Below are positions 53,773 to 58,321 of a stretch of DNA of 64,000 bases, one piece after another. Made by a program: the position numbers and the translations under genes. The stretch's first letter is position 1, and the number at the start of each line of letters is the position of its first letter. The stretch is from Desulfopila aestuarii DSM 18488 (GTDB lineage: Bacteria > Desulfobacterota > Desulfobulbia > Desulfobulbales > Desulfocapsaceae), in contig CAMBBS010000016.1 of assembly GCA_945863875.1 (NCBI GenBank), positions 1-64,000 on the forward strand. The letters are read 5' to 3'. The notes under the pieces were generated by a model, which searched no databases, was not told the DNA's origin, and was given only the letters and a program-made list of their open reading frames with translations.

Positions 53773-55572
53773 TTAATAGGCGAGCAGCAGCCACACATTG
53801 GCGACACCAACGCTGAGCAGCATAAAGGGAAAGGCCGCCTTCATAAATTGAAAGAAGCGAATCGGATATCCGGCCGATTCGGCGATGCCCAGGGTAACCA
53901 CATTGGCGCTGGCGCCGATCATCGTCCCATTACCGCCGAAGCAGGCACCAAAGGCCAGGGCCCACCACAACACGCCGGATTCCGCCCCGGGAATAACCTG
54001 GGTCAGGTAGGCAACAATCGGCAGCATGGTTGCGGTAAACGGAATATTGTCGACAAAGGCACTCATGATTGCCGACACCCAGAGAATCAGGCAAATGGAG
54101 GCCACCAGATTGCCGTGGGCCAGGTAGAGAACCCAGTCGGCGACGATATCGAGCATTCCGGTCTCTTCAACCCCGCCGACAAGGATAAACAGAAACATGA
54201 AAAACAACAGCGTCGTCCATTCGATGTCTTTTTCGATCAACTCAAGCATATCGATTTTTTTGGTCAACAGGCCAAAACTGAACAGTAGCGCGGCACCGAA
54301 CAGCGCCGCGATACTGACCTCCATATGCCAGAAACCATGGGTGAGGAAGAGCGCAACAACAATGGCCATGATCACTATACCAACCCCAAGGAGGGTGGCA
54401 TCGGTGATTTTATATTCCGCACGCAACTCGATGATAAACTGCTGGATATCGTCCACCTTGGCTTTGTTGAATTCCTTACCGAAAAGGTATTTGGAAAAAA
54501 CGAACAGGAGCACCATGACTATTGCACAGGTCGGCGCGAGATTTTGCACAAATTCGACGAAGGTGAGGTTTGCGTAGGAACCGATCATGATATTGGGCGG
54601 ATCACCGATAAGGGTCGCCGTGCCGCCGATATTAGAGGCGAGAATCTCAGGAATAAGCAGGGCCAGCGGTGTGATCCCCAACGAGACGGCAATCTGAATA
54701 GTCACCGGGGTGAGCAAAAGCATGGTGGTGACATTATCGAGAAAGGACGAGGCGATAGCGGTAAAAGCCATGAGGATGACGGCCAGCAGCGAGATATTGC
54801 CGCGGGCCAGCTGATAACACTTATAGGCGCACCATTGAAAGATCCCGGTATGTTTAAGAATACCGACGATGATCATCATGCCCATCAACAAAAAAATGAC
54901 ATTCATATCGATGGCTTTGATGGCGCTTTCGTAGGAAAGGATATGGTATTCCGGATTCAGCGTCCCCAAGGTATAAGAAATAACCAACATGGTCGAGGCG
55001 CCGAGCATGGCCGCCATTGTTCGGTGCAGCAGCTCGAAGGAAATGAGTATATAGGCCAGAACAAAAACGATCGTGGCAATCCAGAAGGCGGGCCCGGCGG
55101 TACGCTGAATCTGAATTTCTGCCAGGCCGATGAGGTTTCCGCCATCCTTGGTCAGTTCATAACCTTTTATTTGATAACTTTTCTTTATAAAACTGGGCTT
55201 GTAAGCGGTTATCTCCAGTGTACTGTCATCGGTCACCAGGCCCGCCTGCAACCATAACCGAACCTGATAACTCCCGTCACTCTCGGTTGTGAGGGAATCG
55301 TCCGGCTGACCGTTGCCATTGGCACGAGATATTTTCAGCGGCGTTCCGTCCAGCAATACCTGAATGTGCGCGGCACCGACGCCGCTGTGGTGCGAGTCGA
55401 GAACCTTGCCAAAGAGGTCCACCCGGACTTGTCCCCCAGGATCAACTTTTTTTTCCGCAGCGACACTCTGCGAACCCAGCAAAGAAAAGAGCATGACCAA
55501 AAGAACCAAGACTCGCACCAAAACTCCAGGTGTCACGCGCCGTCGCCGGCCTCTCATAACCTGCAAAACCAT
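53773..55572 (-). CDS. NhaD/ArsB-fold ion transporter with exported N-terminal domain
   Basis: 599 residues. A signal-like segment (about 15-40) is followed by an extracytoplasmic beta-sandwich (about 45-165; VRVDLFGKVLDSHHSGVGAA and SDGSYQVRLWLQAGLV) like carboxypeptidase-regulatory domains. Then come about 11-12 hydrophobic segments of the ion-transporter superfamily: AIDMNVIFLLMGMMIIVGIL, FLDNVTTMLLLTPVTI, LASNIGGTATLIGDPPNIMIGSYA and a late repeat FVDNIPFTATMLPIV with GNGTMIGASANVVTLGIAE. Likely Na+/H+ antiport or anion transport. Pairs with the Usp gene. Confidence 0.85.
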   Translation of the reverse strand: MVLQVMRGRRRRVTPGVLVRVLVLLVMLFSLLGSQSVAAEKKVDPGGQVRVDLFGKVLDSHHSGVGAAHIQVLLDGTPLKISRANGNGQPDDSLTTESDGSYQVRLWLQAGLVTDDSTLEITAYKPSFIKKSYQIKGYELTKDGGNLIGLAEIQIQRTAGPAFWIATIVFVLAYILISFELLHRTMAAMLGASTMLVISYTLGTLNPEYHILSYESAIKAIDMNVIFLLMGMMIIVGILKHTGIFQWCAYKCYQLARGNISLLAVILMAFTAIASSFLDNVTTMLLLTPVTIQIAVSLGITPLALLIPEILASNIGGTATLIGDPPNIMIGSYANLTFVEFVQNLAPTCAIVMVLLFVFSKYLFGKEFNKAKVDDIQQFIIELRAEYKITDATLLGVGIVIMAIVVALFLTHGFWHMEVSIAALFGAALLFSFGLLTKKIDMLELIEKDIEWTTLLFFMFLFILVGGVEETGMLDIVADWVLYLAHGNLVASICLILWVSAIMSAFVDNIPFTATMLPIVAYLTQVIPGAESGVLWWALAFGACFGGNGTMIGASANVVTLGIAESAGYPIRFFQFMKAAFPFMLLSVGVANVWLLLAY

Positions 55573-55617: not shown

Positions 55618-56361
55618 CTACAGATGAACAAGAAATTTCTTTGCTACATCGGCAATTTCATGCGCCTTGTCGTTGCCGTTGATACATCGCCTGGCACCTA
55701 CGAAATCGGTTTTCGTTTCATCGAGATAGTCGGTAATCCTGCGACCGGTAAATGTTCCGGTTTTGAAGCCATGGACAAGGACAAACAACGCCACATTGGG
55801 CCGCATGGCAATATCCGGTTCATTGACCAGATCAAGGTCGAGCATACTGGAATATTGCTCGTAGTTGTTCTTCCAGGTCAACTGCACGTAGCCGCGACCA
55901 TAAAAAGGGTAGTAAGGGAAATGACTCCTGCGCCAGTCCTCGTCCAGCCAATAGGCTTCCCGTACCGGCTCAAAGGTCTGATTCGTTTCCCATTGCGTTG
56001 TCGCCAGGACATAGGCTATCTGGCTATTCATCCCGATGCCCATTGCCCGGCACGCAGACTTGATTGCCTCAATTGTCCCTTCCTTGCTGGAAAAATCATG
56101 ATCTTTTCTATCTACGATACCATCAAGTTTTTCCTGCAGTGCCACGACGGACTGCTTCCCCACAAATTCAGGGTTACCCGAGTAGACGTCGGTTTTGAAC
56201 TCCGACCAGGAACTCCGCGTCTTCGGGCCGATTAAGCCATCTATTTTCCCCACCGGGTAGCCAAGAAGGCTCAAGGCTCTTTGCATCTCCTTGAGTTGCT
56301 CTTTTGATAATTGCCGAAGCGGTATAGGTCCTGCGATGGACAGCAGTTCTGCCAGTTTCAT
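55618..56361 (-). CDS. GH19-type muramidase/chitinase with peptidoglycan-binding domain
   Basis: 247 residues. Residues about 18-52 form a PG-binding-1 repeat (LKEMQRALSLLGYPVGKIDGLIGPKTR). The C-terminal part (about 75-240) is a GH19/endolysin fold: YVLATTQWETNQTFEPVREAYW carries the two catalytic-type Glu, and YGRGYVQLTWKNNYEQYS the substrate loop. There is no signal peptide or transmembrane segment, so release requires lysis or a dedicated export route. ATG at 56361 has GGAGG. It follows the protease-hydrolase gene by 67 bases. Confidence 0.85.
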   Translation of the reverse strand: MKLAELLSIAGPIPLRQLSKEQLKEMQRALSLLGYPVGKIDGLIGPKTRSSWSEFKTDVYSGNPEFVGKQSVVALQEKLDGIVDRKDHDFSSKEGTIEAIKSACRAMGIGMNSQIAYVLATTQWETNQTFEPVREAYWLDEDWRRSHFPYYPFYGRGYVQLTWKNNYEQYSSMLDLDLVNEPDIAMRPNVALFVLVHGFKTGTFTGRRITDYLDETKTDFVGARRCINGNDKAHEIADVAKKFLVHL

Positions 56362-56428
56362 GGGTTTGCCTCCTGTCAAAAATTTCCCGGTTGATTGTAC
56401 CTGGCGATATTTTCCAGGTGACAAGACA

Positions 56429-58321
56429 TCAATAGCCCTTCATCTCATCCTTGGTGAACGGATGTGGCGGATCTGCCTTCAATATCTGCGCCATGATCGT
56501 GTTCATTGTCTTGACATCATTGTCGAATCCACCATGCGAAGTACTGGTGGTTACGCCTTTTTTGCCGTCCGAGTAATGCATCGACAAACCTGGATGCTTG
56601 GATAATTTTTTCGCATAGCGCTGCATCCCTAAAAGCGGCATGTCGGTTTTTCGCTCAAGAGCCCGGGACACCAGATAAAGCAACGATTTTCGGTAGACAA
56701 GCGCAACATTGTCATCCAGTTCCAGCTGTTCCGTCAGGTTGAAAATGGACAGGGCCGGCAGTTTCACCCTGGTTGTGCCGCTCTTCTCCGCCTGCAGCCG
56801 CGGTTCGTAGTGCTCCCGATAAAAATCAATCGAGCAGGCGGGCGCCATCAAAGAACAACTCTCGATGAGATCGGGACTATCCAGGATATCAAGGGCATTA
56901 AGCAGGTGACCAAGCAAAACGGCCCCCGTGCTATGCCCCGCCAGATGGATCTTCAAGGGGGTATTCTTCAATACCTCGACAAAGGTCTCGATGACGAAGA
57001 GGCCGTCGCTTATTGTATTCTTCTTTTTTTCTGCAAACGGCAGAAAGGCATCGCTTTTCATCTCTTCCCAGATGGGTGTAACCGGCTTGCGGGCAAAATC
57101 TTCTATCAACAGGTCACTTCGTTCGATCAAGGCGTCCTGCAAATCTCGGAAAAACCCCCTTGTCCGCACACCACGGAAAGCACGGACAACGGCATCCTTG
57201 AGTTCTTCAACCAGGCCGGTGTCATACATGATATGAAAGGGATAGATGCCGTTACGCTTGAAGCCTTCTTTTAAGGCTCGGATACGTTTTGCCGATGCGG
57301 CGGGGTTATTCAAACCACCGTGGGCATAGATGAGCAGGTGGTCATATTTTTTTTTCTCGGCGTATTCTCTTATAAGCTCAGCAGTTTTCACAATGTCATC
57401 GGCCGTACTCCAGTAATCCCCCCGCTGCTTGAATTTGCCGTCATCGAAATGGACGAAATGACCGGCTATTTCCAGCCTTTGCGGCGCAGCCTTGGCCGAT
57501 TCCGCGTCAAAGGTGATCTGACTGCGGGCGGAAAGCCCAAAGATATCCGGCGTCGGAATGGCCAGCCGAAAGACCCAGCCGTCACTGATGTTTTGCAGCC
57601 AGTCTTCATAGAGCCAGATGGCGTACCCCTGTTGACCCCATTTCGGGCCCCAGGAATTCTGCACGATGAACCCCTGCCTGTTGTAGCCGACAAGAGCGAA
57701 GGCGTGACCTCCTTCAATAGTACTCGAAGGGCTTATGACCGCCGGCTCATTGCTCTTTGCCGCCTTCGGGCTGAACCAGCCGGAATGAACATCGGCTGAA
57801 ACAAAGATAGCACCGACCTCATTGAGCGCCGTGTGGTAGTCGTTGATTTCCGGCCGAAGACGGTAATAGGCGCCAACGGTGCAGTACCTCGCCGCCTTGG
57901 CCCGCTCAATGGTCAAGTTTCCCGGGTCGTCGGCGGCATAACGCCAGTCGCTCTCGCTGCAGACGCCCATATTTTTCCAACCGCGTATTGCACCGCGGCA
58001 GCTGGAACCCGCATAATCCTCCCCCGGCCACTCGTCATGCTTTTTGGCCATTTCATAGAGCATCCGCGGGCTGGCCTTAAAGTGCAGATCCCTTTTATTG
58101 ACATTTAAATAATTAATGACCGCTGCCAGACCGAAACCGGTACAGGCGCCTTCCGTACCCTGGTTGAGAATATCCGTCCCTCCGCGGTTATCGATTTCCG
58201 GCTGCAGTTGAATGAGGGCCGGCTCGTACATCCGGTCACGAATATCCGGGGTATCTTTCCGGGCGTTGAGAATACGTTTTTCACCGGCCACCTTTACACT
58301 TGGAAATGAATTTCCTGCCAT
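56429..58321 (-). CDS. Papain-like (C1) protease fused to an alpha/beta hydrolase
   Basis: 630 residues. N-terminal C1-type protease: Gln54 and Cys60 in NQGTEGACTGFGLA, His206 in IEGGHAFALVGYN, Asn222 in FIVQNSWGPKWGQQGYAIW, a complete papain triad plus oxyanion Gln. From about 320 a second domain follows: LLIYAHGGLNNPAAS (about 329-343) and the nucleophile elbow HLAGHSTGAVLLGHLL (Ser464), a lipase-like alpha/beta hydrolase. It starts at ATG 58321 with AGGAGG upstream. No signal peptide, propeptide or membrane segment is seen. The gene precedes the GH19 gene. This protease-esterase fusion is unusual; target unknown. Confidence 0.82.
   Translation of the reverse strand: MAGNSFPSVKVAGEKRILNARKDTPDIRDRMYEPALIQLQPEIDNRGGTDILNQGTEGACTGFGLAAVINYLNVNKRDLHFKASPRMLYEMAKKHDEWPGEDYAGSSCRGAIRGWKNMGVCSESDWRYAADDPGNLTIERAKAARYCTVGAYYRLRPEINDYHTALNEVGAIFVSADVHSGWFSPKAAKSNEPAVISPSSTIEGGHAFALVGYNRQGFIVQNSWGPKWGQQGYAIWLYEDWLQNISDGWVFRLAIPTPDIFGLSARSQITFDAESAKAAPQRLEIAGHFVHFDDGKFKQRGDYWSTADDIVKTAELIREYAEKKKYDHLLIYAHGGLNNPAASAKRIRALKEGFKRNGIYPFHIMYDTGLVEELKDAVVRAFRGVRTRGFFRDLQDALIERSDLLIEDFARKPVTPIWEEMKSDAFLPFAEKKKNTISDGLFVIETFVEVLKNTPLKIHLAGHSTGAVLLGHLLNALDILDSPDLIESCSLMAPACSIDFYREHYEPRLQAEKSGTTRVKLPALSIFNLTEQLELDDNVALVYRKSLLYLVSRALERKTDMPLLGMQRYAKKLSKHPGLSMHYSDGKKGVTTSTSHGGFDNDVKTMNTIMAQILKADPPHPFTKDEMKGY

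What the first reader, a model, noticed from the sequence alone, without database searches (positions are those of the whole stretch)
55618..58321. Papain-like protease/alpha-beta hydrolase fusion with a GH19 endolysin
A single protein unites a complete C1 protease triad with a GHSTG hydrolase, and the next gene encodes a peptidoglycan-binding GH19 enzyme. Neither has an export signal. Protease, esterase and wall hydrolase together suggest a lytic, predatory or suicide (defence) module, not previously described to my knowledge.
Basis: partly seen in the sequence, partly recalled or inferred. Interest (0 to 1): 0.7.

Follow-up and report, generated by a model that had tools for sequence, protein, structure and literature searches.

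The report
Protease-lipase protein with wall-cutting partner
A bacterial protein that joins a papain-like protease to a lipase-like enzyme sits next to a wall-cutting enzyme, and some relatives in other bacteria keep the same combination while swapping the wall-cutting part, which suggests a built-in cell-demolition kit, though what it does is untested.

Summary
On the minus strand, 56429-58321 encodes a 630-aa protein: a xylellain-type papain protease (Q54/C60/H206/N222) joined to a lipase-like alpha/beta-hydrolase (G462-H-S464-T-G). The next gene, 55618-56361, encodes a peptidoglycan-binding/GH19 endolysin-like enzyme. No hydrophobic N-terminus was seen in either.

The fusion protein is a real, patchily distributed family: 54 loci in one genome scan; 16 of 93 genomes of the window's bacterial family have both halves. 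Its tree is not clustered by phylum. The exact GH19 neighbour is not conserved, but its class recurs: in 15 of 91 loci a wall hydrolase of one of five kinds (GH19, GH108, Amidase_2, Amidase_3, CHAP) was recognised next door or in the same chain. In four rhizobial loci the hydrolase serine is lost and a GDSL-lipase-like/caspase protein follows at once.

Best reading: a three-target (protein, lipid, wall) demolition module, akin in logic to caspase/alpha-beta-hydrolase pairs of predicted conflict systems. Activity, trigger and target are untested. The genome also has an injection-system cluster, so delivery to other cells is a serious rival. The 'lytic/suicide' idea is partly supported; in 76 of 91 loci no wall enzyme was recognised.

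The parts
56429..58321 (-). Gene for the 630-aa protease-hydrolase fusion (ATG start 58321, stop included)
   Evidence: ORF, sequence; Pfam; conservation; AF2 model pLDDT 84.9, pTM 0.82
57557..58321 (-). Xylellain-type C1A papain-like protease domain, about residues 1-255, with Q54, C60, H206, N222
   Evidence: Top PDB match xylellain 3ois: Foldseek E 1.1e-16; VIA-align Z 28.7, rmsd 2.8, 239 aligned; phmmer 8.4e-18
56429..57490 (-). Lipase-like alpha/beta-hydrolase domain, about residues 278-630, G-H-S464-T-G, H596 and D537 invariant in close relatives
   Evidence: Separate AF2 model pLDDT 86.2; VIA-align Z 10.4-12.3, mostly lipases and esterases; conservation
55618..56361 (-). Gene for the 247-aa PG-binding + GH19 endolysin-like enzyme (ATG start 56361, 67 bases after the upstream stop)

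Best explanation
A cytoplasmic, normally silent cell-demolition module. SHOWN by sequence and model: a papain-type protease with complete catalytic residues, an alpha/beta-hydrolase with lipase/esterase-like fold and GxSxG, and a neighbouring endolysin-like wall hydrolase, with no hydrophobic N-terminal segment in either protein. SHOWN by comparison: in some relatives the wall hydrolase is replaced by one of four other non-homologous kinds or is fused in, the protease can be replaced by a caspase, and in four loci where the hydrolase has lost its catalytic serine a GDSL-lipase-like/caspase protein follows. INFERRED: selection keeps the set 'protease + lipid hydrolase + wall hydrolase' rather than particular enzymes. 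On a trigger (unknown; possibly relief of an autoinhibited protease) the protease cuts cell proteins and the lipase-like domain damages the inner membrane. That opens the way for the signal-less wall hydrolase to reach peptidoglycan, and the cell lyses, much as a phage lysis cassette works but with a lipase in place of a holin. In loci without a recognised wall enzyme the fusion protein would act alone or with unlinked partners.
For: Swappable wall enzymes next to or fused with the family in 15 of 91 loci: GH19 in the window, L129, L133 and fused in L102, L158, L160; GH108 in L065, L067, L068; Amidase_3 in L045; Amidase_2 in L126 and fused in L109; CHAP in L122, L134 and divergently in L119. 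Of 57 closely spaced same-strand neighbours (56 called plus the annotated L126 amidase), 5 are pieces of the gene itself and 10 of the other 52 are wall hydrolases; none of 32 others scanned later with Pfam is one, and no other gene class that I recognised reaches more than 3. L109 is one 940-aa ORF Amidase_2-hydrolase-caspase (hydrolase aligned). The four members that lost S464 (L122, L129, L133, L134) are each followed by a GDSL-like/caspase protein, 69-95% identical. Stand-alone C1 genes in L011, L022 and L027 have a caspase-coding stretch directly upstream on the same strand. Xylellain-type fold; lipase-like fold. Patchy presence (16 of 93) and a tree not clustered by phylum (12 changes, shuffled mean 12.8) fit a mobile accessory function. 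VMAP conflict systems are said always to pair caspases with an alpha/beta-hydrolase gene (PMC7159879, passages).
Against: In 76 of 91 loci no wall hydrolase was recognised, though 13 of 83 loci show only one neighbour and 2 none. Most same-strand neighbours scanned are unrelated housekeeping genes; no immunity gene, sensor or NTPase core was seen among the window neighbours scanned. No PADLOC match. No activity, toxicity or phage data. Hydrolase substrate unknown; Foldseek gives no PDB match under 1e-3 for that domain; catalytic acid not assigned. GH19 in the fused L102 is under Pfam's cut-off (19.4 vs 25.5) and in L158 and L160 is seen only by a home-made profile that included L102. The GDSL part is under Pfam's cut-off (30.5 and 30.7 vs 32.9). 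Several loci are close relatives (L067/L068, L129/L133), so independent events are fewer, by my estimate about nine or ten.
Confidence: 0.42

Rival explanations
1. Effector set delivered into other cells by a contractile injection system (eCIS, or T6SS elsewhere), as an antibacterial or predatory cargo; lack of a signal peptide is normal for such cargo (general knowledge).
For: The window's genome has an eCIS-like cluster at G000:C4 about 73-81 kb (Pvc16_N, AAA, sub-cut-off CIS_tube, Phage_base_V, gp25). In the bacterial family, Pvc16_N is found in 5 of 16 genomes with the protein against 5 of 77 without (Fisher p 0.012); in the phylum sample 2 of 8 against 15 of 387 (p 0.042). eCIS or T6SS marker: 8 of 16 against 12 of 77 (p 0.005; 0.020 with genome size in the model).
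Against: The eCIS association alone falls to p 0.079 with genome size, and no correction for kinship was made. 11 of 16 carriers lack Pvc16_N, 8 of 16 lack both markers, and the own genome lacks T6SS VipA. No stretch similar to the own eCIS proteins was found in the fetched loci or the window, but that test also missed a known gp25 in L165, so it is insensitive. No linked immunity gene was recognised.
Confidence: 0.25
2. An ordinary intracellular or secreted degradative enzyme (protein/ester turnover, scavenging) whose wall-hydrolase neighbours reflect cell-wall recycling rather than killing.
For: Usually a lone gene among housekeeping genes. Xylellain-like peptidases have been proposed to target plant proteins, with the substrate of xylellain unknown (PMC12090721, abstract and passages).
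Against: The window GH19 is phage-endolysin-like, and the partners checked lack a hydrophobic N-terminus, unlike recycling enzymes working in the periplasm (general knowledge). Caspases, GDSL-like/caspase proteins, subtilases and animal-type haem peroxidases occur near some members. Patchy distribution.
Confidence: 0.2
3. The GH19 gene is an independent phage-derived endolysin that happens to lie next to the fusion gene here.
For: Its best phage matches are endolysins or glycosyl hydrolases (47-49% identity over 53-60% of the protein); no other stand-alone gene was found in 57 relatives.
Against: A GH19-like part is fused to the same protease-hydrolase in three other genomes of the family (L102, L158, L160), and GH19 genes lie next to it in S. 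terangae and S. chiapasense and in S. mexicanum on the same strand of one record (GH19 1200750-1201160, C1 1201627-1203087).
Confidence: 0.1

Closest known systems
Caspase plus alpha/beta-hydrolase pairs of VMAP/GAP1-N1 predicted conflict systems (Kaur et al. 2020, PMC7159879; passages seen)
   Same: Thiol protease coupled to an alpha/beta-hydrolase; caspases or GDSL-like/caspase proteins occur beside some members of this family, and L109 joins hydrolase and caspase in one chain.
   Different: Here the protease is papain-type and fused to the hydrolase; no MoxR/vWA/GTPase core was seen in the neighbours scanned; a wall hydrolase is a recurrent partner. Homology of the two hydrolases was not tested.
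Xylellain (PDB 3ois), C1A papain-like peptidase of Xylella
   Same: Best structural and sequence match of the protease domain.
   Different: 3ois is a chain of 291 residues, too short to hold the C-terminal hydrolase.
Phage GH19 endolysins (phrog_181)
   Same: GH19 catalytic part, PG-binding part, no hydrophobic N-terminus.
   Different: Lies beside a protease-lipase gene between a HAD hydrolase and a CitMHS transporter gene, not in a recognised prophage.
Phage lysis cassette (holin + endolysin)
   Same: Proposed logic: membrane breach, then signal-less wall enzyme.
   Different: No holin was recognised; no phage record of 50,697 covers 80% of the fusion protein, though 30 match it in part; no pattern match in IMG/VR.
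eCIS/T6SS cargo
   Same: Signal-less proteases, lipases and wall enzymes can be cargo (general knowledge; polymorphic-toxin survey PMC3482391, passages seen).
   Different: No linkage to injection genes seen, by an insensitive test.

Membership tests
C1A papain family, xylellain type | Gln/Cys/His/Asn catalytic residues | tested here: met
   Q54, C60, H206, N222 invariant in 42 of 42 (A2) and 29 of 29 (A3) rows
C1A papain family, xylellain type | Family profile above curated cut-off | tested here: met
   PF00112 47.1 bits vs 20.7
C1A papain family, xylellain type | Xylellain is the nearest solved fold | tested here: met
   Z 28.7 vs 24.5 for the next entry, among 1000 chains aligned
C1A papain family, xylellain type | Peptidase activity | not testable with these tools
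   needs enzyme assay
Alpha/beta-hydrolase superfamily (lipase/esterase-like) | alpha/beta-hydrolase fold | tested here: met
   Z 10.4-12.3 in the 50 rows shown, mostly lipases/esterases, 167-220 residues aligned
Alpha/beta-hydrolase superfamily (lipase/esterase-like) | Nucleophile elbow GxSxG and catalytic His | tested here: met
   GHSTG in the window protein; S464 and H596 in 42 of 42 rows of A2; both lost in 4 of 29 rows of A3
Alpha/beta-hydrolase superfamily (lipase/esterase-like) | Catalytic acid in place | tested here: inconclusive
   D537 and E534 are candidates invariant in A2; geometry not measured
Pfam Abhydrolase_6 / DUF900 | Score above curated cut-off | tested here: not met
   14.4 vs 26.3 and 12.5 vs 20.5; not filed as a member
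GH19 endolysin | Pfam GH19 cut-off | tested here: not met
   25.3 vs 25.5 bits, a near miss; the L129 relative reaches 30.1
GH19 endolysin | Match to phage endolysin families and conserved acidic residues | tested here: met
   phrog_181 1.7e-26; E125 and E135 invariant in 4 of 4; their catalytic role is recalled, not tested
Kaur et al. caspase/alpha-beta-hydrolase conflict systems | Caspase or trypsin protease | tested here: not met
   The five window proteins scanned have none; some relatives do
Kaur et al. caspase/alpha-beta-hydrolase conflict systems | MoxR-vWA, GTPase or STAND core nearby | tested here: not met
   Pfam of three window neighbours: CitMHS, Usp, HAD hydrolase; the rest of the window was not scanned
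Known anti-phage systems | PADLOC model | tested here: not met
   0 families at E <= 0.1 for both proteins
Phage lysis cassette | Occurs in phage genomes with holin | tested here: not met
   No record covering 80% of the fusion protein, no viral contig by exact patterns
eCIS cargo | Genomic linkage to or packaging by eCIS | tested here: inconclusive
   eCIS in the same genome on another contig; weak co-occurrence; packaging untested

The most novel reading that the evidence does not exclude
A mobile bacterial self-destruction system that attacks protein, membrane lipid and cell wall at once, built as an exchangeable kit (papain or caspase; alpha/beta-hydrolase or GDSL-like lipase; GH19, GH108, two amidase types or CHAP), in which a lipase takes the place of the phage holin to let a signal-less endolysin out.
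Probability: 0.3. Interest if true: 0.78.

Novelty: new variant of a known kind. Interest (0 to 1): 0.52.

Why it matters
If true, bacteria own an executioner kit that parallels lysosome-like or apoptotic multi-enzyme demolition, with interchangeable parts that make its logic readable from genomes. It would link papain- and caspase-type proteases, lipases and phage-like endolysins in one pathway, and give a clear test of whether a lipase can replace a holin.

Tried and rejected
Considered and set aside: a strictly conserved C1-GH19 pair (57 relatives searched, no other stand-alone GH19 gene; four weaker hits, three of them to the PG-binding part and one to the fused L033/L102 protein). A prophage origin of the fusion gene (negative for full length; the viral scan is by exact peptide patterns and finds close relatives only). 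T6SS cargo (own genome no VipA; 3 of 16 carriers vs 8 of 77 others, p 0.39). Promoter/terminator and inverted-repeat scans gave nothing beyond chance. Structure search with the full model was filled by C1 proteases, so the hydrolase was folded alone. Foldseek against PDB then gave no match under 1e-3; the VIA rows shown span about 2 Z units, so no closest lipase family is claimed. The own eCIS proteins gave no tblastn match in the fetched loci, though a gp25 gene is known in L165, so this says little.

Limits of counts: the 91 loci are 83 (20 of them not full-length by the test) plus 8. Gene calls are a simple codon-usage heuristic: it missed the annotated L126 amidase (added from the record) and two GDSL-like/caspase genes (found by tblastn). 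Of the 56 same-strand neighbours, 47 were scanned with Pfam, 3 were assigned by similarity to scanned ones (L067, L068, L133), 5 are pieces of the gene itself, and one (L078 upstream, masked letters) was not scanned. Opposite-strand and more distant genes were scanned only in part. The profiles were built from the very wall enzymes found, so 'none elsewhere among 2852 ORFs' is a weak control. The hypergeometric 3e-7 ignores kinship and is not relied on. The phylum sample counts G200 as a carrier although it matches only residues 18-226, and counts G161 (hydrolase part only; Pvc16_N present) as a non-carrier.
Full report
WHAT IS THERE. The upstream gene (56429-58321, 630 aa) has a papain-family domain well over Pfam's cut-off, and a C-terminal half that no Pfam hydrolase model claims. 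The downstream gene (55618-56361, 247 aa) starts 67 bases after the first stop. It matches PG_binding_1 and GH19 just under their cut-offs, and PHROG families strongly, one of them endolysins. Sequence searches against solved structures give xylellain first for the fusion protein, and a phage protein followed by GH19 chitinases for the partner.

STRUCTURE AND RESIDUES. An AlphaFold2 model made with 42 sequences (mean pLDDT 84.9, pTM 0.82) gives xylellain as best match (Foldseek 1.1e-16; VIA-align Z 28.7, rmsd 2.8 over 239 residues, next entry Z 24.5). The C-terminal half folded alone (pLDDT 86.2) has an alpha/beta-hydrolase fold: Z 12.3 to dienelactone hydrolase, 11.9 to hornet phospholipase A1, 11.8 to A. 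fulgidus lipase, 11.4 to monoglyceride lipase. Foldseek itself gives no PDB match under 1e-3, so the subfamily looks distant from solved ones. Q54, C60, H206 and N222 are invariant in 42 of 42 rows and in 29 of 29 rows of a more diverse set; S464 and H596 in 42 of 42 but only 25 of 29 (six rows are shared). Among viral predicted structures, C1-fold matches include proteins named 'Peptidoglycan binding-like' and 'N acetylmuramidase'.

DISTRIBUTION. One scan of 84,980 species genomes by back-translated peptide patterns gave 54 loci at 46-81% identity, in records named as Thermodesulfobacteriota, Deltaproteobacteria, Gamma- and Alphaproteobacteria, Nitrospirales, Nitrospinae, Krumholzibacteriota, Opitutaceae and others, most of them MAGs. 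In the window's own bacterial family 19 of 93 genomes match at E <= 1e-15, of which 16 have both halves. A contig of a same-genus genome has the same length as a Desulforhopalus singaporensis contig, so the genus is probably Desulforhopalus (inference). A tree of 43 full-length members needs 12 changes of phylum label against a shuffled mean of 12.8 (as low in 37 of 200 shuffles). That fits frequent transfer, with the caveat that labels follow record titles and bins may be contaminated. Plasmids carry it in 27 of 72,556 records (Sinorhizobium 7, Rhizobium 5; 11 with 80% coverage); no phage record covers 80% of it, while 30 match in part.

PARTNERS. I examined neighbours in 91 loci (83, 8; 68 of the 83 have both immediate neighbours called, 13 one, 2 none). 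In fifteen a peptidoglycan hydrolase was recognised directly beside the gene or in the same polypeptide. GH19: the window, S. terangae and S. chiapasense plasmids, and three fusions PG_binding-GH19-C1-hydrolase of 957-964 aa (L102, L158, L160). Pfam confirms PG_binding and C1 in all three; GH19 is under the cut-off in L102 (19.4 vs 25.5) and in L158 and L160 rests on a home-made profile that included L102. GH108: L065, L067, L068. Amidase_3: L045. Amidase_2: R. etli L126 and the 940-aa Amidase_2-hydrolase-caspase protein L109 (which lacks the papain part). CHAP: S. meliloti L122, L134, and the divergent neighbour in S. fredii L119, the last under the cut-off (22.6 vs 26). In the other 76 none was recognised. 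Profiles of the five kinds found no other member in 2852 ORFs of 83 loci; they came from the hits themselves, so this control is weak. The GH19 enzymes of the window and of S. terangae are 40% identical and share the ATT..ET.....PV.EAYWL and YGRGYVQLTW stretches. A further GH19-C1 pair lies in S. mexicanum, outside the 91.

SWAPPING OF PARTS. In L122, L129, L133 and L134 the hydrolase motif GHSxG has become CDGAG and H596 is lost, while the protease residues stay. Each of the four is followed at once by a GDSL-like/caspase protein (Pfam for L122 and L129: caspase 4.5e-21 and 7.2e-21; GDSL 30.5 and 30.7 bits against a cut-off of 32.9; all four 69-95% alike). L109 has a caspase in place of the papain domain and another caspase gene upstream. 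Stand-alone C1 genes L011, L022 and L027 have a caspase-coding stretch directly upstream. Further company: trypsin (L066 next door; fused in L124 and L131), subtilase and animal-type haem peroxidase (L123), subtilase-VWA (L163), haem peroxidase three genes away (L058), caspase (L083, L125), cytochrome P450 (L126 by annotation, L130), SNase (L159), SLATT-like protein under cut-off (L079). The simplest reading is selection for a set of activities.

HOW IT MIGHT WORK. None of the 16 proteins checked (the fusion protein, 11 partners, 4 longer fusions) has an N-terminal segment as hydrophobic as the control membrane protein (at most 1.03 against 2.74); two long fusions have internal stretches up to 1.96. 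A wall hydrolase made in the cytoplasm therefore needs a breach of the inner membrane. The lipase-like domain, or the GDSL-like protein that seems to replace it, is the natural candidate; the protease would act on cell proteins or on activation of the set. This sequence of steps is inference. The alternative is delivery: the genome has an eCIS-like cluster on another contig. Pvc16_N is somewhat more frequent in carriers (5 of 16 vs 5 of 77, p 0.012), but this weakens with genome size (p 0.079), and 11 of 16 carriers lack it; either eCIS or T6SS marker gives 8 of 16 vs 12 of 77 (p 0.005; 0.020 with size). T6SS alone shows no association (p 0.39). None of these tests corrects for kinship.

COMPARISON WITH KNOWN SYSTEMS. 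Kaur et al. 2020 (PMC7159879; passages seen) state that caspases of VMAP conflict systems always have a neighbouring alpha/beta-hydrolase gene, and mention lysozyme- and papain-like peptidoglycan peptidase domains attached to EAD1. A 2021 paper of the same group (PMC8195603; passages seen) lists alpha/beta-hydrolases as effectors on membrane lipids. The present module resembles these pairs in logic but is not filed as a member: no caspase and no NTPase core was seen among the window proteins scanned, and homology of the hydrolases was not tested. The papers listed by searches included none on a papain/alpha-beta-hydrolase fusion with wall hydrolases; several lists were capped (20 of 51,836, 12 of 15, 8 of 14), and subscription journals and preprints are largely outside that library. 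PMC12090721 (abstract and passages) says the xylellain substrate is unknown. PMC10380794 (passages) notes xylellain-type C1A genes in phages and wide transfer.

VERDICT. I rate it a new variant of a known kind, interest 0.52.

Noticed in passing
G000:C4 about 73,000-81,000 (locus L164, 3266-9484): The window's genome carries an extracellular contractile injection system-like cluster (Pvc16_N, AAA ATPase, sub-cut-off CIS_tube, Phage_base_V, gp25).
   Followed up: partly
L109:5221-8043 and L109:4331-5149 (G399:C2): A same-genus genome has a single ORF Amidase_2 - alpha/beta-hydrolase - caspase, with a second caspase gene just upstream.
   Followed up: partly
L123:3025-4908; L058:9590-10828; L126:7765-10667; L130:6934-8214: Animal-type haem peroxidases and cytochrome P450 genes lie near the protease-hydrolase gene in several genomes; role unknown.
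   Followed up: no
L163:8440-11874: Gene after the protease-hydrolase gene encodes a 1144-aa subtilase with a VWA domain.
   Followed up: no
L049:5090-5728; L081:5249-5830: In two genomes of different phyla the gene just upstream encodes a CHRD-domain protein.
   Followed up: no
L079:5938-7879; L047, L075, L085: In four loci the parts of the protein lie in different reading frames; sequencing error, decay or programmed frameshift not distinguished.
   Followed up: no
window 53773-55572 (-): CitMHS-family transporter directly downstream of the GH19 gene; best NCBIfam match is the magnetosome transporter MamN (180 bits, below its cut-off of 500).
   Followed up: no
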